DNA from: Paracoccaceae bacterium
GTDB taxonomy: Bacteria > Pseudomonadota > Alphaproteobacteria > Rhodobacterales > Rhodobacteraceae
Assembly (NCBI GenBank): GCA_004153385.1
Contig: SDAL01000003.1
Coordinates: 248,001 to 312,000, forward strand
Length of the DNA: 64,000 nt
Direction: 5' to 3'
The notes under the pieces are model-generated. The model had not been told where the DNA came from, made no database searches, and saw nothing but the letters and a program-made list of their open reading frames with translations. Positions 13,819 to 40,593 of the stretch are shown piece by piece. Position 1 is the stretch's first letter. Every line of letters begins with the position of its first letter. Made by a program: the position numbers and the translations under genes.

Positions 13819-14195
13819 CGTGATACCTTTCAACATCGGGTCACCAAGAACTGCGGTCTTTGCGATCTGCCGCCATGGTGCTTGTAACAACACTCGTTCG
13901 ATACGCGTCGATATGCGATAACGTGGTCATGTTATCAGATAGCAGCGGCGTAAGATCACGCGCGTCTTTCTTGCCCGTGACCGGTCTTGTCATGTCAGTT
14001 AGGGCATCACGCGCGGCTGTCTAGGCATGTTCGTGACGCATGCCCGTTATGACAAAAAAGACAAACGGTAAGGCAGCGATCAAAGGGGCATGCCCGATGT
14101 GCCAGTGCAACATTTCTGCTGCCCTTTACTAACAAAGCGCCAGCCGCTTCCTATCTTCAACAAAGACTGGACGCATATCTCAGGAAGGGCCCGCC
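13819..14195. promoter_or_regulatory. Divergent intergenic region between ompA-like and phoD-like genes
   Basis: A 377-bp gap that must carry both promoters. Visible symmetry: GATAAC (13917-13922) with GTTATC (13931-13936), and GGCATG (14024-14029) with CATGCC (14039-14044). Neither matches a regulator I can name. No small gene is supported. Confidence 0.3.
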
Positions 14196-15632
14196 TTGCC
14201 GCACACATCACCGCCCACCCAGATCGGACCGTTTTTGTATTTTCGCGCCAGTGACGCGGCAGGGGTGGCAGTGGATGCCATCGTGATCCGCAAGGACACC
14301 ACACCCCCCGCCCCGATCCTGATCCAAGACACATCACACGCACCGCATCTGCTCGTGCAGCTACCGGCGCATACGGTCTGGCGATATCGTCTGACCCTGC
14401 CCCCCGAGGCCACGGGCTACCGGTTCGATGGTGACACCTATCGCGTGACCGCCCACCACGCGGGGGATCTGCGCATCGGGTTTGTGTCGTGCAACGGGGA
14501 AGAACATGGCGACCTGACCCGCCCCGAGCCTGAGCGAAACGTGATGTGGCACCGGCTTTTGGAGCAGCACCGCAAAGCCCCGATGGCGCTTTTGGTGCAA
14601 GGGGGTGACCAGATCTATGCCGACGAGGTCACCGACGGCCATCCTTTAAGCGAAAACTGGCCCGATGACGTGCCGCTTGACCCCGGCGCGGAAGATCTTG
14701 CGGATCTGGAGGCGCATCTGAGCCGTGGATTCATCGACCGCTATCTGACGGTTCTGGGTGCTGCGGCACCGGCGCGGCTTATGGCCGAAGTGCCCAGCCT
14801 TGCAATCTGGGACGACCACGACATTTGCGATGGCTGGGGGTCGCTGCGCCAACAGGCCACCATGAGTGCTGTTGGCCAATGCCTGTTTCGTGTGGCGCGC
14901 CGGTTCTACCTTTTGTTCCAGCATGGCGCGGTCGAGGCGGATGTGCCCGATCTGTTTCTGGATGCGCAAGGCTATAGCCTGAGCTGGCGCCATCATCTGC
15001 CCGGAGTGACGCTTCTGGCCCCTGATCTGCGCTCCGAACGCAGGCGGCGCCAAGTGATGGGCATCCCCGGCTGGCGCGCGATTGATGAGACCCGTTTGGC
15101 CGCCGGCGACCATATGATCCTTGTGTCATCGGTGCCGTTGCTGGGGCCGCGCCTGTCGCTTGTCGAGGGGCTGATGATGAGCATTCCGAAAATGCAAAAA
15201 TACGAAGATGACCTGCGCGATCAATGGCAAAGCCGCGCGCATCGGGCCGAATGGCAACGGATGTTGCGCCGTGTGCTGGAGTGGCGCAAAGCGGGGCCGG
15301 TCACTGTGATCTCTGGCGAAATTCATCTGGCCACGCGTGCCGAGATGAAATCCGCCCCCGGACCGGTCCATCAGCTTGTGGCATCGGGGATATCGCACCG
15401 CGCGCCGTCGGCAGGCTACGCGCGTGGCTTGGGGCTGCTGGCCGGCCTTGGGGAAGCACCGCTGGCCGATCATCCGATCCGCATCCTGCCCGTGCCCGGC
15501 CAGAAGCGCCGCTATACTGCCGAGCGCAATGCCTTGGTGCTCGAACGTGTAGATGGCACATGGTCGGCGCGCTGGCATCTGGAAAGCAGCGGCATCACCC
15601 CGCCGTTGGAGTTGTCGGACGGGGCGCGCTAG
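14196..15632 (+). CDS. PhoD-type alkaline phosphatase / metallophosphoesterase
   Basis: The 478-aa protein has the calcineurin-like fold signatures of the PhoD group: LRIGFVSCNGEE (about 88-100), VQGGDQIYADEV (about 133-144), AIWDDHDICDGWGS (about 203-216), a ...DLRSERRRRQVMG segment, and VISGEIHLATRAEM (about 370-383). These supply metal-binding Asp and His residues. It should hydrolyse phosphomonoesters or diesters. I see no Tat or Sec signal peptide; the start appears to be TTG at 14196 after GGAAGGGC, so it may be cytoplasmic, as in some PhoD-like proteins. It runs convergently into rhaI with only 36 bp between the stops. The start codon is the least certain part. Confidence 0.82.
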   Translation: MPHTSPPTQIGPFLYFRASDAAGVAVDAIVIRKDTTPPAPILIQDTSHAPHLLVQLPAHTVWRYRLTLPPEATGYRFDGDTYRVTAHHAGDLRIGFVSCNGEEHGDLTRPEPERNVMWHRLLEQHRKAPMALLVQGGDQIYADEVTDGHPLSENWPDDVPLDPGAEDLADLEAHLSRGFIDRYLTVLGAAAPARLMAEVPSLAIWDDHDICDGWGSLRQQATMSAVGQCLFRVARRFYLLFQHGAVEADVPDLFLDAQGYSLSWRHHLPGVTLLAPDLRSERRRRQVMGIPGWRAIDETRLAAGDHMILVSSVPLLGPRLSLVEGLMMSIPKMQKYEDDLRDQWQSRAHRAEWQRMLRRVLEWRKAGPVTVISGEIHLATRAEMKSAPGPVHQLVASGISHRAPSAGYARGLGLLAGLGEAPLADHPIRILPVPGQKRRYTAERNALVLERVDGTWSARWHLESSGITPPLELSDGAR

Positions 15633-26866: not shown

Positions 26867-27526
26867 GTGACCCAACCGATGGATAGCGCGATCTGGTCCA
26901 ACGTGGAGTTCGCGGGCCACCGCGCTGCGATTGCAAGCGTCGAGAGTGCCACCGATGCTGGATATGGCGATGTCTTGCAAAGGCGCGCCCGTGCACGTGC
27001 CCGCCTGCTGCGTCAGCTTCAGACGCGGTTCGATCTGCCACTTCGCCCCGTTCACAAGGATAAAAACAGCGCCCCCGTCTGGCCGCGCGGGCAGCGGGGC
27101 AGCATCACCCACTGGCGCACGCGCAGCGTGTGTCTGCTTTATCCGGGCAATGATCTGAACTGGGGTATTGATCTTGAGGGCCCCGCCGACGGTCAGGCGA
27201 TTGCAGCCATCAGCACCGAAGCCCTTTGCCCACAGGAACTGGAGCTTCTGGGGGCGGATCTGTCACGAGACTGCGCATTGGTTTTCTCGGCCAAGGAAAG
27301 CTTTTACAAAGCGGCCTATCCCACAGTGGGCCATATCTTCGGCTTTGACGCGCTGCGCCTTAGATCAAGGCCCGCAAACCACCTGATGCAGTTCGAGCTG
27401 GCCTATGACCTGTCGCGTGATCTGACAAAGGGGCGTGCCATAACTGTCGCCTACAGACCGTTTGCGGGCGCGTATTTAACATGGACCGCACTCGCCTGCG
27501 CACCCGACATATCCGCCGCCAGCTGA
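26867..27526 (+). CDS. 4'-phosphopantetheinyl transferase, EntD-like
   Basis: It transfers the phosphopantetheine arm of CoA to the NRPS carrier domain, activating siderophore assembly. The 219-aa protein has the EntD/Sfp motifs: GSITHW at 79-83 (in place of the common S-H-C), WGIDLE at 99-104 with Mg ligands Asp102 and Glu104, and FSAKESFYKAAYP with Lys143, Glu144 and Lys148. The start is GTG at 26867 or ATG at 26879, both in frame; the Shine-Dalgarno is weak. Its 3' end overlaps the convergent sigma-factor gene by 76 bp. The single-module NRPS 7 kb away is the obvious client. Confidence 0.88.
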   Translation: MTQPMDSAIWSNVEFAGHRAAIASVESATDAGYGDVLQRRARARARLLRQLQTRFDLPLRPVHKDKNSAPVWPRGQRGSITHWRTRSVCLLYPGNDLNWGIDLEGPADGQAIAAISTEALCPQELELLGADLSRDCALVFSAKESFYKAAYPTVGHIFGFDALRLRSRPANHLMQFELAYDLSRDLTKGRAITVAYRPFAGAYLTWTALACAPDISAAS

Positions 27527-28056
27527 GCATGGGCGGCCTTGATCAATGCATGCACGCGCGCAGGCGACAGGTTCATCTGCTTGGCGATCTCGTTCTGGCG
27601 GCGCATGTCCAGACGCGCGGCCATAAATGCGTGGCGTTGTTTGGGCGACAGTTTGCACAGCGCACGCGCGAGATGTCGCAGATCCTCGCGGTCGGTGAGC
27701 TGTTTCTCGACCCCGACCCAGCCCGAGGCCTGCATATCCGGCGCGTCACAACAGGGCGTCGCGCGCGTCTGTTTTCGGTACTGGTCAAGCGCGAGGTTGC
27801 GCACCATCCGTTTTAAAAAACCCCGCGGATTGTCGGGGGCCTCCGTCACGGCGCGGCTGGACAAACACCGGATCGCTGCATCCTGCAGCACGTCTTCGGC
27901 CTTGTCGCGGGCGCCCAGAATCCGGATCGCCTCGCACAGCAACATCTCGCGTTCCTGCACGAGATAGCGCAACAAAAGCCGCTGTGCAGTGATGCACCCC
28001 AAGGCGTGAACGGGGGTGGATTTCGAAAAATTGCGGGTGGGATCTATCTTTGACAT
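27451..28056 (-). CDS. ECF-type RNA polymerase sigma factor (iron-starvation type, FecI/PvdS-like)
   Basis: The 201-aa protein has the two sigma regions: region 2 at about 30-95 (LLRYLVQEREMLLCEAIRIL ... RDKAEDVLQDAAIRCL ... NPRGFLKRMVRNLALDQYRKQ) and region 4 at about 120-180 (LPKQRHAFMAARLDMRRQNE-like, here LSPKQRHAFMAARLDM, with IAKQMNLSPARVHALIKAA as the HTH). It is flanked by siderophore genes and separated from the upstream hydroxylase by a hairpin (28170-28196), so it is its own transcription unit. No FecR-like anti-sigma gene is adjacent, and the receptor lacks an obvious N-terminal signalling extension, so control may be by Fur-type repression as for PvdS. Confidence 0.87.
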   Translation of the reverse strand: MSKIDPTRNFSKSTPVHALGCITAQRLLLRYLVQEREMLLCEAIRILGARDKAEDVLQDAAIRCLSSRAVTEAPDNPRGFLKRMVRNLALDQYRKQTRATPCCDAPDMQASGWVGVEKQLTDREDLRHLARALCKLSPKQRHAFMAARLDMRRQNEIAKQMNLSPARVHALIKAAHAQLAADMSGAQASAVHVKYAPANGL

Positions 28057-28169
28057 CGCGCTTTCCAGATAGGGACGGGGCTACCTACCGGGCGACATGC
28101 TGAGTGGATGCGCCTTGGATACCCGAGCCTCGGGCACTGGTAAAGCGCACACTCGATCATCGGCGGATC

Positions 28170-28196
28170 CCCGCGCCCCAAGGCACGGGGGGCGGG
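28170..28196 (-). terminator. GC-rich hairpin ending the siderophore biosynthesis operon
   Basis: CCCGCGCCCC (28170-28179) pairs with GGGGGGCGGG (28187-28196) with one mismatch, directly after the stop of the hydroxylase gene on the minus strand. No U-tract follows. Confidence 0.5.
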
Positions 28197-28200
28197 ATGT

Positions 28201-29496
28201 TCACTCTGCCGCGACCGCCTGTTCAGGGTCGGTCAGATGGCAAAGCGAGTGTGCGATTTCGGCGGATCGTTGCGCCAGCACGGACAGAAGCGTATCGCTA
28301 AGGCCATGGCTTGTTTCGCTGAAGCCTTGCACGAATACCGCCGGATCGAACCCGTCTTTCATCACCAACCGGTAATCGCGCCCTGCGGTGCGGGTGGCGC
28401 AAAACGGCATTAGCCCGTGGAGGGTGTGTTCATCCAGATCCCGGGTGTATCCGGTGGCAAAGATGACCCTGTCGTAATACGCGGTTTCGACCCCCGAACG
28501 CGTTTGCAGTTCAAGCCCCACATCTTCGTCGCGCAGCGACACCCCCGTCACATGGGTCCGCGCGCGCAAGGCCAGCCGCGCCTCACCCGTAACTGCCTGC
28601 TCGTAAAGCATCGTATAGATCGCATCGATCAGATCCTCGTCGACCACAGCATAATTCGTGGCGGCCAGATCCTTGAGAAGGGACAGGCGCGCGCCCTCCG
28701 GCAGATCGTGGAACGCATCTGTCTGTTCGGGCGCGAAAATCTCGTTCACGAAGGCGGAATCATCAGAAGGTTTCATCGCATCCGCACGCATGACCAGATC
28801 GACATGGGGGGCTTGTGGACGGTTTGCGAGATCCGCAAACACCTCGGCCGCGCTTTGACCACCCCCCACGACCGCGATCCTTGCGTTCGGGCGCAACTGC
28901 GGCACAAGCTTGCGCATATAATCATGCGTATGCAAAATCCGGTCCGTGCAGGCCAGCCCTTTGCATACCGCGGGAAACGCCGGCCTCCCCCCCGGTGCCA
29001 CCACAAGGTTTCTGGCGCGATAGCGAACCTCGCGGCCATCTGCGTCGCACGATGTCACCTCGACATTTTGCACCGCACCGGCGCTGGTGTCAGGCTCTAT
29101 CGCGATGACGCGCCGGTCATAATCGCAGCAATCGAACTGGTCCGCGGCCCATTTCAGATAGTCGTTGAATTCCACACGGCTGGGGAAAAAGGTCTTGCGG
29201 TTGATAAAGGCGTTCATCCGACCCTTTTCATGCAAGTAGTTGATAAAGGTATAGCGGCTTTGCGGATTGCGTTGCGACACAAGATCCTTGAGGAAGGAGA
29301 TCTGCATATCCGCACCGGGGATCATCATACCCGGATGCCACGCAAAGGCGGGCCGTGCCTCAAGGAACTTGACCCGCAAGGGGCTGCCGGCTTCCTCCAG
29401 CGCGATTGCAAGGGCAAGATTGGACGGGCCGAACCCCACACCGATCAGGTCATAGGTCTCGGTATCGCCCGCAAGGCTACGTGTCGTGACGGTCAT
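28201..29496 (-). CDS. L-ornithine N5-monooxygenase (siderophore N-hydroxylase)
   Basis: This flavin enzyme hydroxylates the side-chain amine of ornithine (or lysine) with NADPH and O2, the first step to a hydroxamate iron ligand. The 431-aa protein has FAD motif GVGFGPSNLALAIAL (about 18-32), SFLKDLVSQRNPQSRYTFINYL substrate-side region, NADPH motif AVVGGGQSAAEVFADL (about 206-221) and the late ATGYTRDL motif. The C-terminal SHGLSDTLLSVLAQR closely matches ornithine hydroxylases such as PvdA. It is the last gene of the leftward MATE-PLP-esterase-acyltransferase-hydroxylase operon, overlapping the acyltransferase gene by ATGA. Ornithine is preferred over lysine by motif, with moderate certainty. 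Confidence 0.92.
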   Translation of the reverse strand: MTVTTRSLAGDTETYDLIGVGFGPSNLALAIALEEAGSPLRVKFLEARPAFAWHPGMMIPGADMQISFLKDLVSQRNPQSRYTFINYLHEKGRMNAFINRKTFFPSRVEFNDYLKWAADQFDCCDYDRRVIAIEPDTSAGAVQNVEVTSCDADGREVRYRARNLVVAPGGRPAFPAVCKGLACTDRILHTHDYMRKLVPQLRPNARIAVVGGGQSAAEVFADLANRPQAPHVDLVMRADAMKPSDDSAFVNEIFAPEQTDAFHDLPEGARLSLLKDLAATNYAVVDEDLIDAIYTMLYEQAVTGEARLALRARTHVTGVSLRDEDVGLELQTRSGVETAYYDRVIFATGYTRDLDEHTLHGLMPFCATRTAGRDYRLVMKDGFDPAVFVQGFSETSHGLSDTLLSVLAQRSAEIAHSLCHLTDPEQAVAAE

Positions 29497-30536
29497 ATCC
29501 AGTCTCCTGTGGTGTGCAGACGGGCGGGCGAAAACGCTAGGGGCTGCCCGTCATCATGATCATGGCGCGCCCAAAGGCGGGCCTCGAAAAAATGCTGGCG
29601 CTCTAGGCAGACAAGGCTGGCACGTTTGTGGGAAAAGTCGAACTGGCGCAGGTGGGCAAACCCGCCCCGCGAAAGGTTTTTGAGTTGCCGGGCGTGGCTG
29701 GCTTTGGGTTCGCCCATGATCCGCTGCGTGCGTGGTTCCGCCAAAAACATGTAATGCATCAGCGATGGCATCCATGCGGTGACATAGTCGGCCCCGCGTA
29801 TATCCGCCTCGCCCACAAGCACATGCCAGCCGCGATCCCACGGGCCTGCATCATACTGCGCCCCGATGCGGTTCTCGCGGGCCCAGTACAGCTCGAAATA
29901 GGCAAAATCACGCCCGTCCAGCGCCCCGATCACAGGCAGGATATGCGGATCGGCCAGCAGACGCTCCAGATAGGCGCGATGCGCGTCAAGTGTGCCTGCT
30001 TCCTCGAAAAACTCGGCCACGCGCGGGTCGTTTTGCCAGCGGTGGAAGGTCTCCAGATCCGACATATCCAGCGCCCTGAGCGTGAACCATTGATCCAGCC
30101 ACGGGATGTGGCGACGGTAAAGCACCCCGTCGGGTTTGGGGGGGCGCACCGGATGGCGCCCATGCGGGCCTTGGGTCCACAGCGTGGGATAGGTGGCAGG
30201 GGCGTGTCCCAGCCAGCGATCGGGCACCTGCCAAAGTGCCGCTGGCAGCACCACAGGGCCCGAGCGCGCAGGCAGTGCCACGCCTTTTTGCATCAGTTCC
30301 GGCAACAGCGGCGCCCAATCCGGCCCTGCCAGACGGATCGCCACCTCGGGGCCTTCGGCGCTCAGGGTCTCGAACGCGGCCAAAGCCTGTGCCAGCGCGT
30401 CCGGGCCGGTGGGCGCGCCCAGATCCAGACGCCCCTGCCCCAGATCATCCAGCGCAAGCGGCGAATGGGAGGCAACCACAACACTTTGCGGCCCGCGACG
30501 CGCCAGAAGCGGTTGATCTATCACATCACGAGGCAT
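29493..30536 (-). CDS. Siderophore N-acyltransferase (IucB/RhbD-like GNAT)
   Basis: It would acylate the N-hydroxy amine made by the neighbouring hydroxylase, completing the hydroxamate. The C-terminal half (about 150-330) carries the AlcB/IucB-type acetyltransferase pattern: LRALDMSDLETFHRWQNDPRV, FAYFELYWARENRIGAQYDAG, DRGWHVLVGE, RIMGEPKASHARQLKNL and the conserved C-terminal FSHKRASLVCLERQHFFE. The N-terminal 140 residues are a poorly conserved second lobe. The 347-aa length fits IucB relatives. It overlaps the esterase gene by 11 nt and the hydroxylase gene by 4 nt. The acyl donor (acetyl-CoA or other) cannot be read from the sequence. Confidence 0.88.
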   Translation of the reverse strand: MPRDVIDQPLLARRGPQSVVVASHSPLALDDLGQGRLDLGAPTGPDALAQALAAFETLSAEGPEVAIRLAGPDWAPLLPELMQKGVALPARSGPVVLPAALWQVPDRWLGHAPATYPTLWTQGPHGRHPVRPPKPDGVLYRRHIPWLDQWFTLRALDMSDLETFHRWQNDPRVAEFFEEAGTLDAHRAYLERLLADPHILPVIGALDGRDFAYFELYWARENRIGAQYDAGPWDRGWHVLVGEADIRGADYVTAWMPSLMHYMFLAEPRTQRIMGEPKASHARQLKNLSRGGFAHLRQFDFSHKRASLVCLERQHFFEARLWARHDHDDGQPLAFSPARLHTTGDWI

Positions 30537-31479
30537 GGGGCGGCTCCTTTGGTGTGTTCTCTTGAAGGGTCTCGCACGACGCGCGCCATAAGGGCCATGT
30601 CGCTTGATCCAGCCCGAACGCCCAATGAAGCGCGCGGTTCACAGCAACAGGCAGGACGGACATATGCGTTTCTTGCGCATAGGTTTCATAGACCACATCA
30701 CAGCCCTTGCGGGTGAGCGCGCCGGCCATCTCGCGGGCGGCGGCAATCGTGCGGGTCCGTGCGTTGGCAGCCAGACGGGCCGCGCGCTCGGGCCCCTTAT
30801 CTTGGAACGGCGCAAGGTGCGCCCCCTCCCATTCGCCAGCCGACAGATGCACACGCGGCGCAGGCGCAGACGGTGCAAACCTCTCCAGATGCTCCAGCAG
30901 GAAGGACCCCTCCCATGTGATTGCGGGGCTGGCCGCGATCACATTGCGAAATGCCTCAGGTTTGACAAACATCAGCCACAGCGCGAATAGCCCGCCAAAG
31001 GAATGGCCAAACAGCGACTGTTGTGCACGATCAAGGCGGATCTGGGTTTCGACCGCCTCGCGGGCATCTTCCAATAAAAACCGCGCCATCTCGGCCCCGC
31101 CGCCTGTGCGCACCTGTGGGCCGTTGTCGTGGAATGGGGGATAGGTCTGTCCGGGGGGTGGGCCAAGATCCCAGCTGCGCCTAAAGCTGTCATAAGCGTC
31201 ATCGGTGGGATAGCCGACCGCGACCAGCGCCCCCCAGCCCAAATTCGTGCCGGTGGGCCAGAACGCCTGCGCGCGCATCGTATCCACCGCCGTGGCGATC
31301 ACCGCGTTGCCATCCAGCAGCCACAGCGCAGGCCAGCCTGCGGCGGGTTCGGGTCCGGGAGGGGTCCAAAGGAATACCCGCCGGATATCGCCGGTGACAC
31401 GATCAGTCAGATCGGTATAGCGGATCGCGCCGGGCGACCAGAGGTGTGACCAGCCGTTCTCTTTTGCCATATCGCTCAT
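30526..31479 (-). CDS. Ferri-siderophore esterase (Fes/IroE-like alpha/beta hydrolase)
   Basis: The 317-aa esterase would open ester-linked siderophores, releasing iron inside the cell or trimming the product. It has the alpha/beta-hydrolase esterase pattern: RRVFLWTPPG, WPALWLLDGNAV, GYPTDDAY with RSWDL, nucleophile Ser160 in GHSFGG, and a late ETHMSVLP with the probable catalytic His. There is no signal peptide from the ATG at 31479, so it is cytoplasmic. That start overlaps the PLP-enzyme stop by ATGA, so the longer frame to 31701 is rejected. Its presence suggests that the siderophore contains ester bonds, as in cyclic oligoesters. Confidence 0.87.
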   Translation of the reverse strand: MSDMAKENGWSHLWSPGAIRYTDLTDRVTGDIRRVFLWTPPGPEPAAGWPALWLLDGNAVIATAVDTMRAQAFWPTGTNLGWGALVAVGYPTDDAYDSFRRSWDLGPPPGQTYPPFHDNGPQVRTGGGAEMARFLLEDAREAVETQIRLDRAQQSLFGHSFGGLFALWLMFVKPEAFRNVIAASPAITWEGSFLLEHLERFAPSAPAPRVHLSAGEWEGAHLAPFQDKGPERAARLAANARTRTIAAAREMAGALTRKGCDVVYETYAQETHMSVLPVAVNRALHWAFGLDQATWPLWRASCETLQENTPKEPPHAS

Positions 31480-32639
31480 GCGGCCACCTGCTCGCCAAGA
31501 CCAAGCGCGTGGTCCAGATCTGCCAAAATCCGCTCGACCGGCTCCAGACCGACCGCAAGCCGGATCGTGCGTGCACTGACCCCGAAACGCTGGAACGCAT
31601 TGGCAGCGCCCGCCAGACCGCATGCAGCCTGCCCCGGCACGATCAGGCTTTCGGGACCGCCCCAACTGACCCCCAGACGGATCACCCGCAACGCATTGCA
31701 AAAACGCTCCACATCGAGGCCCTGCGCAAGATCGAAGGCGAACAACCCGCCATAGCCTGTCAGCCCGGGAGGGGGCGCGTCTTGCAAAGCGGGGTGATGC
31801 ACTTTGGTGATGCGCGCGTCATTTGACAAAGCGCGCGCCACCGTCAGACCGCCTTGCATATGGGCCTGCATCCTCATTTCGAGCGTCCGCATTCCGCGCA
31901 GTACCAAAAACGCATCCATCGGCGACATGCGACCGCCGAAAAGATGCGTGGCCTCGTGGTCGATCTGCGCGATCAGATCCTTTGGCCCCGCAACCAGCCC
32001 CGCCAGTGTATCGCTGTGGCCCGAGAGATATTTGGAGGCCGCATGAACCACAAGATCGACCCCAAGATCACAGGGGCGCTGGAACAGCGGCGTGGCCCAT
32101 GAATTATCGATCACCGACAAAACGCCCTGCATGCGGGCGGCTGTGGCGATGGATTGCACGTCCTGAACGCGAAATGTCCAGCTGGTGGGGCTTTCCAGAT
32201 AGACCAGCCGCGCACCGGGCAAGGCATCGATCACCGCTTGCGTATCGGTGCCGTCCACATAAACGGTCCTGACGCCGAAGCGGCGCAAAACGGTTTCGAA
32301 CAGACGATAGGCATCGGAATAAAGATGCTCGACCGCCACAATCGTATCGCCCGATTTGACAAAAGGAAGAACCGCGCCGCAAATCGCCGCCATACCGGAG
32401 GAAAACCCCCGCGCGGCCTGTGTGCCCTCAAGACGGGCGATCAGGCCTTCCAGCTCGCTCACCGTCGGATTGTCGCCGCGCGAATATACCAACCGGTTCG
32501 AGCGTCCGGCAAACACATCCGCAATCTGGGCGTAGCTGTCGAACAAAAACGAGGTGGCTTGGAAGATCGGCGGCGCACTGGCACAAAACGGCGCCTCCTG
32601 CACCGGGGTAATCAGATCGGGGCGGGGTGAAGTGGTCAT
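31476..32639 (-). CDS. PLP-dependent Cys/Met-metabolism (cystathionine gamma-synthase/beta-lyase) family enzyme in siderophore operon
   Basis: The 387-aa protein is a fold-type I gamma-family PLP enzyme: YSRGDNPTVSELE (Tyr52 and Arg54 contact the cofactor phosphate), SSGMAAICGA, ESPTSWTFRVQD, VIDNSWATPLFQ with Asp178, and the Schiff-base lysine Lys203 in HAASKYLSGHSD. It overlaps the MATE gene upstream and the esterase gene downstream by ATGA, so it is a member of the siderophore operon, not a passenger. Relatives act on cysteine, homoserine esters or cystathionine. No such step is needed for known simple ornithine hydroxamates, so its role here is unknown. It could modify a building block or supply a substrate for the NRPS. 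Confidence 0.87.
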   Translation of the reverse strand: MTTSPRPDLITPVQEAPFCASAPPIFQATSFLFDSYAQIADVFAGRSNRLVYSRGDNPTVSELEGLIARLEGTQAARGFSSGMAAICGAVLPFVKSGDTIVAVEHLYSDAYRLFETVLRRFGVRTVYVDGTDTQAVIDALPGARLVYLESPTSWTFRVQDVQSIATAARMQGVLSVIDNSWATPLFQRPCDLGVDLVVHAASKYLSGHSDTLAGLVAGPKDLIAQIDHEATHLFGGRMSPMDAFLVLRGMRTLEMRMQAHMQGGLTVARALSNDARITKVHHPALQDAPPPGLTGYGGLFAFDLAQGLDVERFCNALRVIRLGVSWGGPESLIVPGQAACGLAGAANAFQRFGVSARTIRLAVGLEPVERILADLDHALGLGEQVAA

Positions 32640-33961
32640 GCGGAAACTCCCATTGCATCGTGAGAAAGGCGTGCGTGGCGCAGCAAGGCCAGCGCCAGAA
32701 TAGCCGACAAGCAGGCGGCGAGCGTGATGGACAGCGGCAGGGCCACCATGGCGTAGCGCGGCACCAATGCGCCAAGCACCGGCCAGAACACCCAGCCCAT
32801 CGGCGCAAGTCCAAGCCAAAGCGCAAGCCATGGACGGATCGCAGCCTGCAAGCTGATCTGGCCGACAAGCCGCACGGCAATGGCAGGCACCGCCAGCATC
32901 AGCCACCCCAAAGACATCGCGGCATTTTGCTGCACAGCAGCGGAATTGCTGAGCAGACCGGCCAAAGGCGCGGCACAGAAATAGACGACAATCGCAGCCA
33001 GACCGCCCGCCACCAAGGCCGCGCGAACCAGTATGGCCTGAGCATGCACAAGGCGCGCGTGGGCGCCCTCGCCATGGGCATGGGCCAGGATCGGCTGCAC
33101 ACCGATGGCGAACCCCTCAAGCGGCAAGATCAGCACAAACAGCAATCTCAGGGCCAGTCCGAGCCCTGCGACAGCCTCGAGCCCACCCAGATCTGCGGCC
33201 AGACGCAAGACCGCGATGAACCCGAAGGTGGTCACAGCAAATGACACAGCCTCGGGGGCGCCTACGCGAATGATGGGCACCAGAAGGGCAACAGACCCTG
33301 CCTCGGGGCGGCGTTCGGGCGCGCGAAACCACACAGCCCATACGCCAAGCGTGATGATCTGGGCGGTCAGCGTGGCCAAGGCCGCCCCGTCCAGCCCAAG
33401 ACCAAAGGCAAAGATAAATACCGGATCAAGCATCATATTCAGCCCGAAACAGAGCGCGAGTGTCCTCAGGCTCATCCGTGCGGCCCCCCGCCCGATGGCA
33501 AGAAAATCGCACATGATCTGGATCAGACCGAAAGAGACCGTCAGGCTGAGAAACGTATAATAGGAGCTGGCGAGCGACATGCTGGACGGCGGCACACCGA
33601 GCATCCGTAACGCCGGCGCGCGCGCGATCAAAAGCAGGCCCCCGACCGCAACCGCCAGCGCAAACGTGGCGCAAAACGCGACCCCAGCAATCTGGCGCGC
33701 GTGCTGCGGTTTCTTTGCGCCCAAAGCCCGCGCCGTGGTGCTGGCCGCCCCGATCCCCAGCCCGATCCCCAGCGCGGCCACAAGCCCCGCAAACGGGGCC
33801 AGCAACACCAGCACCGCCAATGGCGCGGCCCCGAGCTGGCCCACAAATCCTGCATCGACCACCTGATGGGCCGCGTTAAGCGATAGCCCCGCCATGGCCG
33901 GAAGACCAAGACGGACCATCAGCCTTTTCAGGTCTGGATCGGAAAGATCTGGCACGCTCAT
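32636..33961 (-). CDS. MATE-family efflux transporter (probable siderophore exporter)
   Basis: A 441-aa inner-membrane protein with twelve hydrophobic segments in two MatE repeats (RLGLPAMAGLSLNAAHQVVD ... GQLGAAPLAVLVLLAPFAGL in the first half; RVGAPEAVSFAVTTFGFIAV in the second). It is the first gene of the leftward siderophore operon and translationally coupled to the PLP gene. Context suggests it exports the finished siderophore or a precursor from the cytoplasm. It is divergent from the MbtH-NRPS operon across a 175-bp control region. Confidence 0.88.
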   Translation of the reverse strand: MSVPDLSDPDLKRLMVRLGLPAMAGLSLNAAHQVVDAGFVGQLGAAPLAVLVLLAPFAGLVAALGIGLGIGAASTTARALGAKKPQHARQIAGVAFCATFALAVAVGGLLLIARAPALRMLGVPPSSMSLASSYYTFLSLTVSFGLIQIMCDFLAIGRGAARMSLRTLALCFGLNMMLDPVFIFAFGLGLDGAALATLTAQIITLGVWAVWFRAPERRPEAGSVALLVPIIRVGAPEAVSFAVTTFGFIAVLRLAADLGGLEAVAGLGLALRLLFVLILPLEGFAIGVQPILAHAHGEGAHARLVHAQAILVRAALVAGGLAAIVVYFCAAPLAGLLSNSAAVQQNAAMSLGWLMLAVPAIAVRLVGQISLQAAIRPWLALWLGLAPMGWVFWPVLGALVPRYAMVALPLSITLAACLSAILALALLRHARLSHDAMGVSA

Positions 33962-34136
33962 TGCAGGGATCCTGTTTGCAGAGGCTTTGACAACAAGACG
34001 CAGGGGCCATGCCGAAATTCATAGCCCGCCCGAAAAAATCCCCAAAAGTGGAAAAACTCGTCGCGGGGGGGTGAATTTCCGCCGCTTTGAAACGTCCTCA
34101 GGGGAAACAGACCCATTCGGTTCGGAGGTTTTTCTC

Positions 34137-34367
34137 ATGTCCCTGTCTTCCTCGCATTCCCCTCTGGCGCAGGCGCAATGGCGCATTTTGCGCAATCACG
34201 AGGGGCGCTATTCCGTACATCCGGCCGCCCTTGAAACACCCCCAGGATGGGAGGCTTTGGGGCCACCGGACACCCGCGCGGCCTGTTTGGAAAAGATCGC
34301 ACATCTTTGGTCTGATATGCGCCCCAGCGCCCTTCAGGCGGCGATGACACAGGTGGAGGCATCATGA
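34137..34367 (+). CDS. MbtH-like NRPS accessory protein
   Basis: This 76-aa protein is a chaperone-like partner of adenylation domains. Family pattern: WRILRNHEGRYSVHPAAL, then PPGWEALGP, CLEKIAHLWSDMRPSAL. The usual motif is S-x-W-P after the first strand; here it is SVHP, so the first conserved Trp is His, while the later Trp residues (PPGW, HLW) remain. The ATG at 34137 has GGAGG 8 nt upstream; the frame is open to 33894 but the family length supports the short form. It overlaps the NRPS start by ATGA, which fits a dedicated pair. Confidence 0.85.
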   Translation: MSLSSSHSPLAQAQWRILRNHEGRYSVHPAALETPPGWEALGPPDTRAACLEKIAHLWSDMRPSALQAAMTQVEAS

Positions 34368-37300
34368 GCAAGGATCTGGTGTTCGACACCCCGCCCCGCC
34401 CCGCGTCCGCCCGCCGGTTGGAGGATCTGGAGAAACGCATCTTTGCACATGAACAGGTCGGAGAGCTTGCGCCGTTTTGCCCCGAGACGTTGATCCTTGA
34501 ATTCGATGACCGGTTTCCAAAGCCACAGATCGAAAATGCACTGACCCTGCTTTTGCAGACCCATCCCGCCTTCACCGCGCGGTTCGAGCATCGCCCGGGC
34601 GGCGAAGTCTGGCGCCATGGGGACGCGCGCTACCCCTGCCATCACTGCGGGCACGGCTCGCTCGCCGATGCACAGGCACGCAGCACACGCCACCAGCCCA
34701 CGGTGATGGGCACGCCCGTTCATGTCGATCTATGGCACACCGCCGGTGGCGGGCATATTCTGGCCCTGACCTTGCATCCCATTCTGGCCGATGATGCGGT
34801 CTTTGCCACAATCGAGGCCGCACTTTGCCGCGCGCTCGGGGCGGACGCGATACCTGCCCCGCCCGATGAGGCACCCAACCACGGCCAGTCCGGCCCACAG
34901 GCGCAAAACCTGCACGCATGGCAGGCACTTCTTGACGCCAGCGCAATCGCCCGCGTGCCCCACCGTGCAGCCCCTGTAGACAATGGCGCGCGCCTGCGGG
35001 CCACGCGCATCCTGCCGCGCGCCCTTTCGGATCACATCCGCACGCAAGGCACCGAAGATGTACTGGCCACAGCCCTTGCAGTGGTCTTGCGCCGCTACAG
35101 CGGCCTTGAGGCGTTCCGCTTCGTGCTTGGCACGCCCCGCCCTGCCCGCCATCGCCAAAGCGGCCTGATGCCGCTGTGCGTGACCCCCGATCCGGCCCAA
35201 GGTTTCGCGCAGACACTGCACCATGTCGCACAATCAGCGCGCAACGGGCGGGCGCGAATGATCTCTGCAGAACAGCTTGTTCAGGACCGGTTGGGCCGTC
35301 AGGATGCCGATCGCAACCCGTTGGGGGCAGTGGCGCTGCACATCATGGCAGAGCGGGAACTGCCCCACGGCATCACGCGACATATGCGCCCAACACCGCC
35401 CCTTGCGGAGGAGGTGGTGGTGATGGCCCAGCACACACATGACGGGTTGCACCTGACAGGTGATGCGGAAAAAGGGCTTTATGCACAGGCGCAGATCGAA
35501 CGGCTTTTGTGCCATCTGGAGCGTGTGATCACGGCGGGGCTGGAGCGGCCAGACCATCCGACGGCGCGGATCGAGATTGTCTCGACGGACGAGCTTGATG
35601 CGCTCTCGGCGCCCTATCCCGACAACGTTCCTGTCGACCCGCGCGCGACCCACGAGATTATCGCCGATCACGCGCGGGCGACCCCCGACAAGCTCGCCGT
35701 GATCTGCGGCGCTGACCGGCTGACACACGGCGCGCTTGATGCGCAGGCCAATGCGCTGGCCCACAGGCTTGTGGCGCTTGGTGTTGGCGCGGAAGTTCCC
35801 GTGGCCATCGTGATCGAGCGCGGTGCTGCTGCCATGATCGCTATTCTGGCCGCGATGAAGGCGGGCGGGGCTTACGTGCCGGTGGAACCCGACCATCCCG
35901 AAAGCCGCAATCATCATATTCTGAACGACGCAGGCGTGCGTGTTGTCCTGACCCGCAAGCGCTATCAGAACCGGCTGCCTGCGCAGATGTCGGCCACGGT
36001 GCTTTGTCTGGATGACATCACCGATCCGCCAAGAGGCGACGCGCCTCAGGTCACAATCCATCCCGACCAGATGGCCTATATCATGTATACCTCCGGCTCG
36101 ACCGGCAAACCCAAAGGGGTTGCGGTGGAACATGGTCCGCTGAGCGATCACAACCAGACCACCGCCCGTGTCTATGAGATGAGCAGTGAAAGCCGCGAGC
36201 TACCGTTCTTGCCGTTCTCGTCGGATGGCGGGCACGAACGCTGGATGGTGCCGTTGATGGTGGGCGGATCGGTGGTGATCCCCGACGGCCCGCTATGGAC
36301 GCCGGAACAGACGCTGGCGGCCATGCGCGAACACGGCTGCAACAACGCATCGATCCCGACCACCTACCTGCAACAACTCGCTGAATGGGCCGAAGACACC
36401 CGAAGCGCGCCGCCCATGCGCCTATACAGCTTCGGCGGCGAGGGGTTGGCGCAATCGACCTTTGATCTGTTGTCGCGTGCACTCAAGGCCAAAACCCTGA
36501 TCAACGGCTATGGCCCGACCGAAACCATCATGACGCCTATGGTCTGGAAGGTGGCCGCAGGCACCCAGTTCGAAGGGGTCTATGCGCCCTTGGGGCGTGC
36601 GGTGGGCGACCGGCGGGCCTATGTGCTTGATCCCGAAATGATGCCATGCCCGCAAGGGATCGTGGGAGAGATCTATCTGGGCGGCACGGGCGTGGCGCGT
36701 GGCTATGTCGGCAAGCCCGATGTTACCGCAGACAGGTTTATCCCCGATCCGTTCGGACCGCTGCTGGATGCGACCTGCGGGGCGCGGCTTTACCGTACCG
36801 GTGATCTGGGCCGCTGGCGCGAGGATGGAACCATCGAATTTGTCGGGCGTGTCGATTTGCAGATCAAGGTCAACGGATACCGGATCGAACCCGGCGAGAT
36901 CGAGGCCGCGCTTCTGGCAGAGCCGCTGGTGAGCGAGGCGCTGGTTCTGCTGCGCGAGGACGGGGCCGCAAAGCGACTGTTGGCCTATGTCACAGGCCCG
37001 GATCTGGCCAACGGGCCCGACCTTTTGCGGGCGCTAGAGACCAAGTTGCCCCGACATATGCTGCCAGAGGCGGTGATTGTACTGGACCGCATGCCCACGA
37101 ATGCCAATGCCAAGCTGGATCGCGCGGCCCTGCCCATGATGCCCGCCGCACGGGCCCAAGGGGCCGGTGTGACCGCCAAAGGACCGACGGAGGAAAAGAT
37201 CCTTGCACTGTGGCGCGAGATCATCGGCGTGCCGGATATGGGGGTCACGGATGATTTCTTTGCCATGGGTGGCAAATCCCTGCTGGCGCTCAAGGCCTTG

Positions 37301-38233
37301 GCAGGAATGCGAAAATACTGGCCCGATACGGCGCTTACCATTGCGGATCTGTTTGACGCCCCCACCGTGCGCACGATTGCCGCGCGGATCGAGGCGGGCG
37401 GACAGACCGGACGCACGGCCATTGCCTTGCGCGCAACCGGCACGAAGCCGCGGCTTTATTGTTTTCCGGGGCTTCTTGTGTCCACGCGCGAATATATGCG
37501 CCTGACGGATTATCTGGGGCCGGACCAGCCGGTCACGGGGTTCTTGTGCCACTCGCTCAACGAGGAGAAAACCCTCAATGTCTCTGTAGAGGATGTGGTG
37601 GCCGAATATGTCGCGCATATCCGCGCACAAAGCGCCGGTGAACCGGTGGCCTTACTGGGCTGGTCATGGGGCGGGCTTTTGGCATGGGAGGCTGCGCGCC
37701 AGCTGCGCGATACGGTCGATATCCGGCTGTTGGGCATGGTCGATGTGTGTGATCTGGGCACCGATTTCATGCCGGGTGTCACGCCGCAGTTTGCCGCAGG
37801 CGAACGTGCGAAGCTGGAGCGCGATCTGCAGCTTTGGCTTGGCAAAACCAGAATGCGGCCACAATGGGACCGGCTGATCGGATCGATGGATGCGGAATGT
37901 TATGCCCAGTTCTTGCGCTTTATCGGCAACGAGCGCGACAGCCTGCCCTTTGACGGTCCCGAGATTTCCAGTCGCGAACATACGTTCTGGGTGCTGATCG
38001 ACAATGCGCTGGTGTTTCGCCGCCATCGACCCGCACCGCTGGATCTGCCGGTGGCCTCGTTCAGCGCGGGCGACAGCCTCAGCCGCGGGTTGAACCTGAT
38101 GGACTGGCGCAAACTGTCGCCACGCGCCGCACCCGCAGAGGTCGTGGCAGGCACAAACCACCTCCATATCATCGGCGAGGCGCGGTTTCATGCCCGTTTC
38201 AAAGCGCGGCTTGAGACGGCATGGGAGAGCTGA
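34364..38233 (+). CDS. Single-module NRPS, C-A-T-TE (EntF-like architecture), siderophore synthetase
   Basis: The 1289-aa enzyme has a condensation-like domain (about 20-410), adenylation domain (about 430-925: YIMYTSGSTGKPKG, NGYGPTE, YRTGDLGRW, VNGYRIEPGEIEAALL, NANAKLDRAAL), carrier domain (about 940-1015: DDFFAMGGKSLLAL with the phosphopantetheine Ser near 972) and thioesterase (about 1045-1289: GWSWGGLLAWEAARQL with nucleophile Ser near 1101, late NHLHI with the likely His). The condensation motif HHxxxDG is HPILADD at 138-144: the catalytic second His is Pro and Gly is Asp. The A-domain pocket begins SSDGGHERW, an arrangement seen in modules for polar amino acids. With hydroxylase and acyltransferase genes nearby, the likely monomer is acyl-hydroxyornithine, joined and released, perhaps cyclised, by the TE. 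The product is not predicted with certainty. Confidence 0.93.
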   Translation: MSKDLVFDTPPRPASARRLEDLEKRIFAHEQVGELAPFCPETLILEFDDRFPKPQIENALTLLLQTHPAFTARFEHRPGGEVWRHGDARYPCHHCGHGSLADAQARSTRHQPTVMGTPVHVDLWHTAGGGHILALTLHPILADDAVFATIEAALCRALGADAIPAPPDEAPNHGQSGPQAQNLHAWQALLDASAIARVPHRAAPVDNGARLRATRILPRALSDHIRTQGTEDVLATALAVVLRRYSGLEAFRFVLGTPRPARHRQSGLMPLCVTPDPAQGFAQTLHHVAQSARNGRARMISAEQLVQDRLGRQDADRNPLGAVALHIMAERELPHGITRHMRPTPPLAEEVVVMAQHTHDGLHLTGDAEKGLYAQAQIERLLCHLERVITAGLERPDHPTARIEIVSTDELDALSAPYPDNVPVDPRATHEIIADHARATPDKLAVICGADRLTHGALDAQANALAHRLVALGVGAEVPVAIVIERGAAAMIAILAAMKAGGAYVPVEPDHPESRNHHILNDAGVRVVLTRKRYQNRLPAQMSATVLCLDDITDPPRGDAPQVTIHPDQMAYIMYTSGSTGKPKGVAVEHGPLSDHNQTTARVYEMSSESRELPFLPFSSDGGHERWMVPLMVGGSVVIPDGPLWTPEQTLAAMREHGCNNASIPTTYLQQLAEWAEDTRSAPPMRLYSFGGEGLAQSTFDLLSRALKAKTLINGYGPTETIMTPMVWKVAAGTQFEGVYAPLGRAVGDRRAYVLDPEMMPCPQGIVGEIYLGGTGVARGYVGKPDVTADRFIPDPFGPLLDATCGARLYRTGDLGRWREDGTIEFVGRVDLQIKVNGYRIEPGEIEAALLAEPLVSEALVLLREDGAAKRLLAYVTGPDLANGPDLLRALETKLPRHMLPEAVIVLDRMPTNANAKLDRAALPMMPAARAQGAGVTAKGPTEEKILALWREIIGVPDMGVTDDFFAMGGKSLLALKALAGMRKYWPDTALTIADLFDAPTVRTIAARIEAGGQTGRTAIALRATGTKPRLYCFPGLLVSTREYMRLTDYLGPDQPVTGFLCHSLNEEKTLNVSVEDVVAEYVAHIRAQSAGEPVALLGWSWGGLLAWEAARQLRDTVDIRLLGMVDVCDLGTDFMPGVTPQFAAGERAKLERDLQLWLGKTRMRPQWDRLIGSMDAECYAQFLRFIGNERDSLPFDGPEISSREHTFWVLIDNALVFRRHRPAPLDLPVASFSAGDSLSRGLNLMDWRKLSPRAAPAEVVAGTNHLHIIGEARFHARFKARLETAWES

Positions 38234-38439
38234 ATTCTGACAGGCGTGCCCGGGTCGGGGGGGAGATGCCACCCGTCGGCCCGTCTGCGCCGGATTTCGC
38301 GCGATGCGGGCCCGTAACCATGGGGATGCATCTTTCGTCCATCACATAATTGACATCGCATGTGACTTCGCTATTTTGCCCCCCACCCAGGGTGACCCAA
38401 GGCAACGCAGCATAGTTCAACCTCGGGAAATCTGTTTTC

Positions 38440-40593
38440 ATGATATTTCAACGTTATTTTTCACCCTCGCGCAGGGCACGACGCCTTTTGTTATGCCAAT
38501 CCGCTCTGGTCGGTCTGACCGCCACCACATTTCAGGCTCATGCGCAGGAACAGACGGATGTGGTCCAGCTTGCGCCAATTGTGGTGCAAGGAAAACTGTC
38601 CTATTCCGGTGCGATCGACGGCTACCTTGCCCCCGCCACCGAAACCGGCGTGAAATCCGGTGTGCCTTTGGCGGATGTGCCGCAATCGATCACGGTTGTG
38701 ACCTCGCGCGAACTGCAAGACCGTGCGCCACGGCAAGTCGAGGATGCGATTGCCTATGTGCCGGGGGTGCTGGCCTCGACATGGGGGATGGATGACCGTT
38801 ATGACCAATTCTCGATCCGTGGCTTTGATATGGGGCCGTCGGCCACCTATCGTGACGGTCTGCCCCAAAAAGCGCTGAGCTTTTCAGGCTTCACCGTTGA
38901 TCCCTATATGATCGAGCGTATCGACGTTCTGCGCGGCCCTGCGGGGGTGCTTTACGGCTCCAACGATGCGGGCGGGATGGTCAATATGGTGACCAAACGC
39001 CCCGTGTTTGACCATCTGGCACAGACAACCGTCGGCGTCGATAGCAACGGCACGGGGACTGCCGCGTTCGACTGGTCGGGTGTGCTCGACGAGGCCGGCA
39101 CACTGGCCGGGCGGATCACAGGCAAGGTGCGCAAGGGTGAAACCGAAATCGACGACTCCGACAACGATCGGGCGTTCCTGTCCGGCGGGCTGACATGGGC
39201 GCCGTCAGATGACACCGCGCTGACCCTTCTGGCCCATGTCCAGCGCGACAAGCTGACCCCGATCATCATCGCGCCTGTCAACGGCGAGGATATCGATCCC
39301 GCTTGGGGCAGCGTGCCAAGCGATTACCCCTACAAACAATCCCCCTATAACCATTTCAACACCAAACAGCAGTCGTTCGGCTGGGAATTCACCCATAATT
39401 TCAGCGCAAATCTGGTGTTCAACCAACGCGCCCGATACGCACATCAGACAACAGATTACTCCCAGCTGGATTTCAGCGCCGCCACCGCGAGCGGGCTTGA
39501 ATACTATGCCTTCCGCAACGAGGAAGAGGCCCAGACCTTCGGCCTTGATAACAACATCGGCTGGACGCAGAATTTCGGGGCTGCGGAAAATACACTGACC
39601 GTGGGGGCAGACTACCAACGCTCGCGCTATGAAGTGGGCCAGAAGATCGACTACTCGACCTATATCGTCAGCTATGATGCGCCGAATTTCGATTTCGATG
39701 TCGTCGATCCCGCGCTTGCGACCAAAGATCGCACGACCTATGTGGAAAAAGGCGTTTATCTGCAAAACCATCTGGACCTAGGTCAAGGCACCAAGGTCAC
39801 GGCCGGCTTGCGCCACAGCTGGTTTGATACCAAGGCCGAGAACCTGCTGGACGGCTCACGCGACAGCCAGGACAACTCTGCCACCACCGGCATGATCGGT
39901 CTGACCCATACGATGGCCAACGGCCTGACCCCCTATATCAGCTACACCGAAGGGTTCGTTCAAAATACCGGCCGCACCATCGACGGTGATGTGCTTGACC
40001 CGTCAGAAAGCACGCAATGGGAGGTCGGGCTGCGCTATGCCCCGACATCGGATCTGATGCTGAGTGCGGCACTGTTTGATCTGCGCAAAACGAATGTGCG
40101 GGAATATGACACCCGCGATGCGACATGGTCGAGCTTTACACAAGCAGGCGAGATCAAATCGCAAGGGATCGAACTGGAGGCCCGCGGCAGGCTGACAGAC
40201 CGGCTTGAAGGGGTGATGAGCTATACCTATCTCGACACCGAAAACACCCGTTCGGAAGATGCATCGCTTGTCGGAAACGAAAATGCCTTTGCGCCGCACC
40301 ATCAGGCATCGCTATGGCTGGATTATGATGCCTCCAATCTTACGCCGGGCCTGAAAATCGGTGGCGGCCTGCGCTATGTGTCGTCCTATTACGCGACCCA
40401 AAGCAATGCGCGCAAAACCGACGGCTACGTGCTGGCGGATATGGGGCTCAGCTACGAAATGTCTGATGTGTCGTTCGATCTGGGTGTCACCAACCTGTTC
40501 GATAAAACCTACGAAAACATGTGTTACGACAGCTACGGTTGTTCCAGAGGCGAAGGCCGTCTGGTGACGTTCTCCGTGACCAGCAACTTCTGA
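38440..40593 (+). CDS. TonB-dependent ferric-siderophore receptor
   Basis: The 717-aa outer-membrane protein imports the iron-loaded siderophore using TonB energy. It has a signal peptide (RRLLLCQSALVGLTATTFQA, cut after AHA near residue 34), a short TonB-box-like stretch (DVVQLAPIVVQG), plug domain (DVPQSITVVTSRELQDRAP ... QFSIRGFDM ... IERIDVLRGPAGVLYGSNDAGG) and a C-terminal 22-strand barrel ending in VTFSVTSNF with terminal Phe. The sequence is FhuA/FcuA-like, the class for hydroxamates. It has no long N-terminal signalling domain, so it does not work as a FecA-type sensor. It lies 206 bp downstream of the NRPS. Confidence 0.93.
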   Translation: MIFQRYFSPSRRARRLLLCQSALVGLTATTFQAHAQEQTDVVQLAPIVVQGKLSYSGAIDGYLAPATETGVKSGVPLADVPQSITVVTSRELQDRAPRQVEDAIAYVPGVLASTWGMDDRYDQFSIRGFDMGPSATYRDGLPQKALSFSGFTVDPYMIERIDVLRGPAGVLYGSNDAGGMVNMVTKRPVFDHLAQTTVGVDSNGTGTAAFDWSGVLDEAGTLAGRITGKVRKGETEIDDSDNDRAFLSGGLTWAPSDDTALTLLAHVQRDKLTPIIIAPVNGEDIDPAWGSVPSDYPYKQSPYNHFNTKQQSFGWEFTHNFSANLVFNQRARYAHQTTDYSQLDFSAATASGLEYYAFRNEEEAQTFGLDNNIGWTQNFGAAENTLTVGADYQRSRYEVGQKIDYSTYIVSYDAPNFDFDVVDPALATKDRTTYVEKGVYLQNHLDLGQGTKVTAGLRHSWFDTKAENLLDGSRDSQDNSATTGMIGLTHTMANGLTPYISYTEGFVQNTGRTIDGDVLDPSESTQWEVGLRYAPTSDLMLSAALFDLRKTNVREYDTRDATWSSFTQAGEIKSQGIELEARGRLTDRLEGVMSYTYLDTENTRSEDASLVGNENAFAPHHQASLWLDYDASNLTPGLKIGGGLRYVSSYYATQSNARKTDGYVLADMGLSYEMSDVSFDLGVTNLFDKTYENMCYDSYGCSRGEGRLVTFSVTSNF

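What the first reader, a model, noticed from the sequence alone, without database searches (positions are those of the whole stretch)
26867..40593. Compact siderophore cluster built on a single NRPS module
One C-A-T-TE module with hydroxylase, acyltransferase, esterase, MbtH, exporter and receptor implies an iteratively assembled hydroxamate. An ester-cleaving enzyme suggests ester links or a macrocycle, as in enterobactin-type logic but with hydroxamate ligands. The gene set resembles vicibactin-type chemistry but is not identical. The product may be undescribed.
Basis: partly seen in the sequence, partly recalled or inferred. Interest (0 to 1): 0.75.

Follow-up and report, generated by a model that had tools for sequence, protein, structure and literature searches.

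The report
Marine variant of vicibactin siderophore cluster
This marine-type bacterium carries a relative of the gene set that root-nodule bacteria use to make the iron-scavenging ring molecule vicibactin, but it lacks the usual acetylating enzyme and carries a ring-opening esterase, probably to release the iron after import.

Summary
At 26867-40593 lies a compact siderophore cluster: PPTase, ornithine hydroxylase, acyltransferase, esterase, PLP enzyme, MATE exporter, MbtH, one C-A-T-TE NRPS and a TonB receptor; an ECF sigma factor was missed. It is a vicibactin-type (vbs) cluster. It is still a variant, shared with few exceptions by 19 Rhodobacterales-type loci. (1) The hydroxylase is PvdA-like, not VbsO-like. 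(2) No VbsC (acetylase) or FhuF (ferric reductase) was found in the genome. (3) It carries an esterase whose nearest solved relatives are siderophore esterases, among them fungal EstB. The esterase often sits with uptake genes: near fhuBDC in Rhizobium, and in esterase-ABC-receptor cassettes in two other genomes. It therefore most likely hydrolyses the imported ferric ring. Predicted product: desacetyl-vicibactin-like cyclic trihydroxamate ([M+H]+ 649.340; ferric 702.252). In the window and all 71 readable NRPS relatives the C domain lacks the catalytic His, so the TE probably makes the ester bonds. Product and enzyme activities are untested.

The parts
26867..27526 (+). 4'-phosphopantetheinyl transferase (VbsP position; no detectable similarity to VbsP)
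   Evidence: Pfam ACPS and 4PPT_N; VbsP gives no hit in the window
27451..28056 (-). ECF sigma factor, probable RpoI counterpart (27% to RpoI, 47% to the Pseudosulfitobacter one)
   Evidence: Sigma70_r2/r4; blastp
28201..29496 (-). L-ornithine N5-hydroxylase, PvdA-like rather than VbsO-like
   Evidence: PF13434; best solved relative 3s5w, L-ornithine 5-monooxygenase, 362 bits (its name PvdA is recalled), against 143 bits to VbsO
29493..30536 (-). N5-hydroxyornithine acyltransferase, VbsA orthologue
   Evidence: 51% to VbsA over 226 aligned residues; best solved relative fungal SidF
30526..31479 (-). siderophore esterase, no signal peptide evident by eye; Ser (GHSFGG) and His (THMS) motifs present
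   Evidence: PF00756; solved relatives 6guo fungal siderophore esterase, BES, EstB, ferric enterobactin esterase, IroE; motifs
31476..32639 (-). PLP enzyme, VbsL (acyl-hydroxyornithine epimerase) orthologue with the HAASKY lysine motif
   Evidence: 54% to VbsL; lysine motif in 72 of 72 copies read, 71 loci and the window (L054 has no copy)
32636..33961 (-). MATE exporter, VbsD counterpart
   Evidence: MatE; 38% to VbsD
33997..34022 (-). predicted ECF-sigma promoter of the five-gene minus-strand operon: ATGAATTT-N14-CGTC
   Evidence: motif [N]TGAATTT-N14-CGTC on this side in 18 of 19 Rhodobacterales-type loci
34071..34096 (+). predicted ECF-sigma promoter of mbtH-NRPS: GTGAATTT-N14-CGTC
   Evidence: same side in 14 of 19 Rhodobacterales-type loci
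34137..34367 (+). MbtH-like protein, VbsG counterpart
   Evidence: PF03621; 41% to VbsG
34364..38233 (+). single-module NRPS (degenerate C)-A-T-TE, VbsS orthologue
   Evidence: 49% to VbsS over full length; A-domain pocket region 84%
38440..40593 (+). TonB-dependent ferric-siderophore receptor
   Evidence: 30% to R. johnstonii FhuA, 60% to the Pseudosulfitobacter vbs receptor

Best explanation
A vicibactin-type cluster of the Rhodobacterales kind. Inferred route: the PvdA-like enzyme makes N5-hydroxy-L-ornithine. The VbsA orthologue adds (R)-3-hydroxybutyryl from CoA. The VbsL orthologue epimerises the unit to D. The NRPS A domain, helped by MbtH, loads it on the T domain, and the TE joins three units through ester bonds and closes the ring, the C domain being catalytically dead. 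With no VbsC, the ring keeps free alpha-amines (desacetyl-vicibactin). The MATE protein exports it and the TonB receptor takes back the ferric form, with an ABC importer probably encoded on another contig. The cytoplasmic esterase opens the ring to free the iron, in place of FhuF reduction. The ECF sigma factor switches on the two divergent operons. Shown: gene content, orthology, no match for VbsC and FhuF, motif losses and gene linkage. Inferred: substrates, product, esterase target, sigma-promoter pairing.
For: Orthology to the annotated R. johnstonii 3841 locus. A-domain pocket 84% identical to VbsS against 24% for the C domain. VbsL is the marker by which antiSMASH detects vicibactin (PMC12971057, passages). 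Hydroxylase nearest an ornithine 5-monooxygenase, acyltransferase nearest SidF, esterase nearest fungal siderophore esterase and BES. No VbsC or FhuF in the own genome; VbsC absent in 18 of 19 and FhuF in 19 of 19 Rhodobacterales-type genomes, with 3841 as positive control in the same calls. Esterase about 2.7 kb from fhuBDC in R. leguminosarum WSM1325 and 3841, and in est-ABC-SBP-receptor cassettes in two further genomes. In 27 Rhizobium vbs genomes all 11 without esterase keep an intact FhuF, while 8 of 16 with esterase lack it or hold a fragment. Divergent ECF-type sites conserved in position.
Against: No chemistry or enzyme assay. The hydroxylase is not orthologous to VbsO. Another GNAT elsewhere in the genome could acetylate. 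The esterase/FhuF complementarity rests on 3 independent pairs on supported branches and is not significant on the tree. Esterase and VbsC are not exclusive: L008, L036 and L045 carry both at the locus, and all 16 Rhizobium genomes with esterase have VbsC at the vbs locus. The L050 and L052 genomes have neither release enzyme. In CIAT894 and Shinella the esterase homologue has no hydroxamate-uptake genes among its listed neighbours.
Confidence: 0.78

Rival explanations
1. The product is ordinary N2-acetylated vicibactin; an unlinked, unrecognised GNAT supplies the acetyl groups.
For: NRPS pocket and TE are close to VbsS. In five Phyllobacterium genomes (L030, L031, L035, L046, L065) a strong VbsC match lies outside the fetched locus, so unlinked VbsC exists. 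L008 has VbsC with the Rhodobacterales-type cluster.
Against: VbsC finds only an insignificant match in the own genome (E 0.058) and none at 1e-5 in 18 of 19 Rhodobacterales-type genomes.
Confidence: 0.25
2. The acyl group differs from 3-hydroxybutyryl (a longer or branched hydroxyacyl), giving an undescribed ring size or tail.
For: The acyltransferase is only 51% identical to VbsA over 226 aligned residues, and the nearest solved relative SidF is an anhydromevalonyl-CoA transacylase.
Against: The pocket of the NRPS A domain, which must accept the acylated unit, is 84% identical to VbsS. No acyl-CoA-forming gene is among the 19 proteins of cluster and neighbourhood that were scanned.
Confidence: 0.15
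3. The esterase is biosynthetic or editing (removes misformed chains, acts as a second thioesterase) rather than releasing iron.
For: In the window it sits inside the biosynthetic operon between PLP and acyltransferase genes, and likewise in Pseudosulfitobacter.
Against: In R. leguminosarum it lies near fhuBDC. In L086 and L102 it is with importer and receptor and no NRPS match within the fetched stretch. Its solved relatives are siderophore esterases.
Confidence: 0.12

Closest known systems
Vicibactin (vbs) cluster, Rhizobium johnstonii 3841 pRL12 (product known for R. leguminosarum / R. etli)
   Same: VbsS, VbsL, VbsA, VbsD, VbsG, RpoI-type sigma factor, PPTase and FhuA-type receptor counterparts; two divergent operons
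   Different: no VbsC, no FhuF; PvdA-like instead of VbsO-like hydroxylase; esterase inside the cluster; different gene order; PPTase not detectably related to VbsP
Fusarinine C / triacetylfusarinine C system of Aspergillus (SidA, SidF, SidD, SidG, SidJ/EstB)
   Same: works alike: ornithine hydroxylase, SidF-like acyltransferase, cyclic tri-ester trihydroxamate, optional acetylation, esterase that releases iron (PMC10500206, passages)
   Different: fungal, anhydromevalonyl units, SidD of other architecture (recalled); a parallel in logic, not the same cluster
Enterobactin system (EntF, Fes)
   Same: single-module NRPS with iterative TE and a cytoplasmic esterase for iron release (recalled)
   Different: hydroxamate not catechol; C domain lacks the catalytic His

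Membership tests
Vicibactin (vbs) cluster | VbsS-type single-module NRPS | tested here: met
   49% over full length, pocket 84%
Vicibactin (vbs) cluster | VbsL acyl-hydroxyornithine epimerase (antiSMASH marker) | tested here: met
   54% to VbsL, PLP Lys motif kept; marker use from PMC12971057 (passages). The antiSMASH model itself was not run
Vicibactin (vbs) cluster | VbsA N5-acyltransferase | tested here: met
   51% to VbsA
Vicibactin (vbs) cluster | VbsO hydroxylase (lysine-hydroxylase-like lineage) | tested here: not met
   best solved relative 3s5w, which VbsO ranks only seventh; 19 of 19 Rhodobacterales-type loci nearer the window's enzyme, 53 of 53 others nearer VbsO
Vicibactin (vbs) cluster | VbsC N2-acetylase | tested here: not met
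   no match in the window, only E 0.058 in the own genome
Vicibactin (vbs) cluster | ECF sigma RpoI with its target promoters | tested here: inconclusive
   an ECF sigma gene 27% identical to RpoI is present and divergent TGAATTT-N14-CGTC sites exist; that this sigma factor reads them is inferred
Vicibactin (vbs) cluster | product is a cyclic tri(3-hydroxybutyryl-hydroxyornithine) | not testable with these tools
   needs LC-MS
Siderophore esterases (EstB/BES/Fes type) | PF00756 family with GHSxGG serine and C-terminal histidine | tested here: met
   Ser motif 37 of 37 copies at loci and window; His motif 36 of 37
Siderophore esterases (EstB/BES/Fes type) | hydrolyses a ferric tri-ester siderophore | not testable with these tools
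   linkage to uptake genes only

The most novel reading that the evidence does not exclude
In alphaproteobacteria, ferric vicibactin-type hydroxamate rings are opened by a dedicated EstB-like esterase as an alternative to FhuF reduction, in acetylated (Rhizobium) and non-acetylated (marine) versions alike. The esterase travels in an esterase-importer-receptor cassette that also occurs without the biosynthetic genes (siderophore piracy), and the marine branch makes a non-acetylated ring, so that the bacteria hold both halves of the fungal fusarinine C / triacetylfusarinine C logic.
Probability: 0.5. Interest if true: 0.6.

Novelty: new variant of a known kind. Interest (0 to 1): 0.42.

Why it matters
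Iron release from bacterial hydroxamate siderophores is usually ascribed to reduction; the review passage I read says so of bacteria in general (PMC10500206), although esterases for catecholate tri-esters are known. A hydrolytic route for a bacterial tri-ester hydroxamate would add a second mechanism, give genome miners a marker, and point to uptake-only 'pirate' cassettes in marine bacteria. The missing catalytic His in every C domain read makes the TE the testable ester-forming enzyme for the vbs family.

Tried and rejected
The locus-level anticorrelation of esterase with VbsC and FhuF looked strong. Genome-wide searches weakened it: 16 of 27 Rhizobium genomes have the esterase elsewhere, all with VbsC at the vbs locus, and VbsC is unlinked in five Phyllobacterium genomes. 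Fisher p = 0.008 within Rhizobium, but only 3 independent pairs on supported branches, so no phylogenetically corrected significance. In one search I coded weak FhuF matches (28-32% identity: L040, L042, L056, L073) and the weak L066 esterase match (E 1.6e-6) as absent.

I first thought the A domain lacked Asp235; the HMMER alignment puts the D of SSDGG at that place, so nothing was concluded about acetylation from it.

The promoter motif alone is weak evidence: in the window 6 of 100 shuffles hold a match, and in the own genome 9 places match with spacer 12-18, 2 of them with spacer 14 (the backward control gave 0). Its conserved place in the relatives is what carries weight.

Literature: Heemstra 2009 is not held, so its reaction order and stereochemistry are recalled. 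Vicibactin-like clusters are already noted in passing for Pseudosulfitobacter (PMC12376047, passage) and, with partial similarity, Paracoccus (PMC8273931, passages). No product from this branch stood in the listings I saw, which are partial: 40 of 171; 40 of 46; 25 of 41; 10 of 29. No vicibactin esterase showed (4 papers; vicibactin passages read in 3, esterase passages in 2 of those) or in the listing (12 of 45, listing only). 'Vicibactin 7101' gave no paper; that name and its desacetyl structure are recalled.

Structure prediction was not used. Rows dropped: L009 from the NRPS alignment statistics and tree (my ORF picker took a wrong frame); L025 and L045 are not held in the genome searches and were left out of the trait counts.

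One search scored only 3 candidates per genome, so the absence of the NRPS in G072 and the count of 1 of 198 genomes are uncertain.
Full report
What is there. With starts chosen by me, five genes overlap on the minus strand: MATE, PLP, esterase, acyltransferase, hydroxylase. They diverge from mbtH-NRPS, with the receptor downstream and PPTase and an ECF sigma factor at the left end. Ten proteins were scanned: the sigma factor and nine neighbours. The neighbours look unrelated: a sugar-type ABC operon with an FGGY kinase on the left, an HpcH/HpaI aldolase, a Crp-type regulator, an FMN oxidoreductase and one without family on the right. The genome is 3.77 Mb. On a tree of 72 NRPS rows the window is nearest Sulfitobacter sp. 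DFL-14 (L010) and lies in a fully supported clade of 19 rows: the window and 18 loci of Rhodobacterales type. With L009, left out of the tree, these are the '19 Rhodobacterales-type loci' below; L014 is among them although its record is titled Nocardioides.

What it is. Against the annotated R. johnstonii 3841 pRL12 locus, blastp gives: NRPS-VbsS 49% full length, PLP-VbsL 54%, acyltransferase-VbsA 51%, MATE-VbsD 38%, MbtH-VbsG 41%, sigma-RpoI 27%, receptor-FhuA 30%, hydroxylase-VbsO 32%. The vbs names of that locus are assigned by me from gene order and product, in line with the rpoI and vbsLDAGSO listing in PMC6421345 (passage). VbsC is described as an acetylase in PMC10510648 (passage). VbsL is the marker antiSMASH uses for vicibactin (PMC12971057, passages).

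What differs. (a) Hydroxylase: the best solved relative is 3s5w, an L-ornithine 5-monooxygenase (362 bits; the name PvdA is recalled), with a lysine monooxygenase second (307 bits); VbsO itself ranks 3s5w seventh. 19 of 19 Rhodobacterales-type loci are nearer the window's enzyme, 53 of 53 others nearer VbsO. (b) VbsC: no match in the window, only E 0.058 in the own genome, none at 1e-5 in 18 of 19 Rhodobacterales-type genomes (L008 has it, 46 of 48 asked genomes held). (c) FhuF: no match in the own genome nor in the 19. The 3841 proteins were found in their own genome, which is the positive control. (d) Esterase: at the locus in 18 of 19 Rhodobacterales-type loci and 18 of 53 others. The exception, L010, has it about 46 kb away on the same contig.

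The esterase. Its nearest solved relatives are a fungal siderophore esterase (6guo), BES, the triacetylfusarinine C esterase EstB (6gud) and ferric enterobactin esterases. The serine motif is kept in 37 of 37 copies and the histidine motif in 36 of 37 (the exception, L065, is a short frame). It is often linked to uptake. In R. leguminosarum WSM1325 it lies about 2.6 kb from fhuBDC, and the same genes lie about 2.7 kb from it in 3841; FhuCDB is described as the vicibactin importer in PMC3836376 (passage). In Phyllobacterium sp. 628 it is in the vbs cluster with an fhuB transporter. In the L010 genome and in G072 it forms a cassette with ATPase, two permeases, binding protein and a receptor. The G072 receptor is 69% identical to the window's, and no NRPS match was found there at 1e-250 (with only 3 candidates scored per genome). 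In that sample of 198 family genomes the NRPS was found in 1 (the own) and the esterase in 2. Against the linkage: in Rhizobium sp. CIAT894 the homologue has no uptake gene for hydroxamates among its listed neighbours, and in Shinella it adjoins an iron ABC transporter of another kind.

Esterase and FhuF as alternatives. Of 27 Rhizobium genomes, 16 have the esterase and 19 a near full-length FhuF. All 11 without esterase have FhuF; of the 16 with it, 8 have FhuF, 4 hold only fragments and 4 nothing. Every one of the 27 has at least one. Fisher p is 0.008, but the tree gives only 3 independent pairs on supported branches and no significance. Outside Rhizobium, the L050 and L052 genomes have neither, and the L073 genome has no esterase and only a 30% FhuF match. 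The esterase is not tied to loss of acetylation: all 16 Rhizobium genomes with it have VbsC at the vbs locus.

Assembly. Over the A-domain pocket stretch the window and the 3841 VbsS are 84% identical, against 66% for the A domain, 63% for TE, 45% for T and 24% for C. In 71 of 71 readable relatives and the window the C motif is HPxxxD instead of HHxxxD, so the TE most likely makes all esters; this is inference. The acyltransferase's best solved relative is SidF. The pandorabactin paper states that in the vicibactin model the 3-hydroxybutyryl-hydroxyornithine is made before loading on the NRPS (PMC12144892, passage).

Regulation. Between the two operons lie divergent copies of NTGAATTT-N14-CGTC (33997-34022 and 34071-34096). 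Among the 19 Rhodobacterales-type loci the MATE-side copy occurs in 18, the mbtH-side copy in 14, both in 13, so each has at least one; 5 of 53 other loci have a match near the NRPS. With a spacer of 12-18, GTGAATTT...CGTC occurs 9 times in the own genome, twice with spacer 14, against 0 for the backward control. In the window 6 of 100 shuffles reach one match. CGTC as an ECF -10 element is recalled. No such site precedes the receptor.

Importer. The own genome's best match to the Pseudosulfitobacter vbs binding protein (56%) lies on contig C5 with ATPase and two permeases; no receptor or esterase homologue was found in that stretch. That this importer serves the siderophore is a guess; the genome holds 11 FecCD matches.

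Verdict. A vicibactin-type cluster, variant of a known kind. The product is probably the desacetyl ring. The bolder point is the esterase as the iron-release enzyme for a bacterial hydroxamate tri-ester.

Noticed in passing
34364-38233 and 71 relatives: The second His of the C-domain HHxxxDG motif is Pro in every vbs-type NRPS read, which suggests a dead or structural C domain across the family.
   Followed up: partly
   Followed up: partly
L014: A record titled Nocardioides marinus carries a Rhodobacterales-type vbs cluster inside the Rhodobacterales clade; probably a mislabelled or contaminated record.
   Followed up: no
L054: Phyllobacterium sophorae locus gives no hit for PLP, MATE, receptor and importer genes within the fetched stretch; cluster broken or split.
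   Followed up: no
G054, G058, G059, G069: Short FhuF fragments remain in four Rhizobium genomes that carry the esterase; FhuF seems to be decaying there.
   Followed up: partly
L088 (Phyllobacterium sp. 628), 13965-14839: The esterase match is in two pieces and the open frame is short; possibly frameshifted.
   Followed up: no
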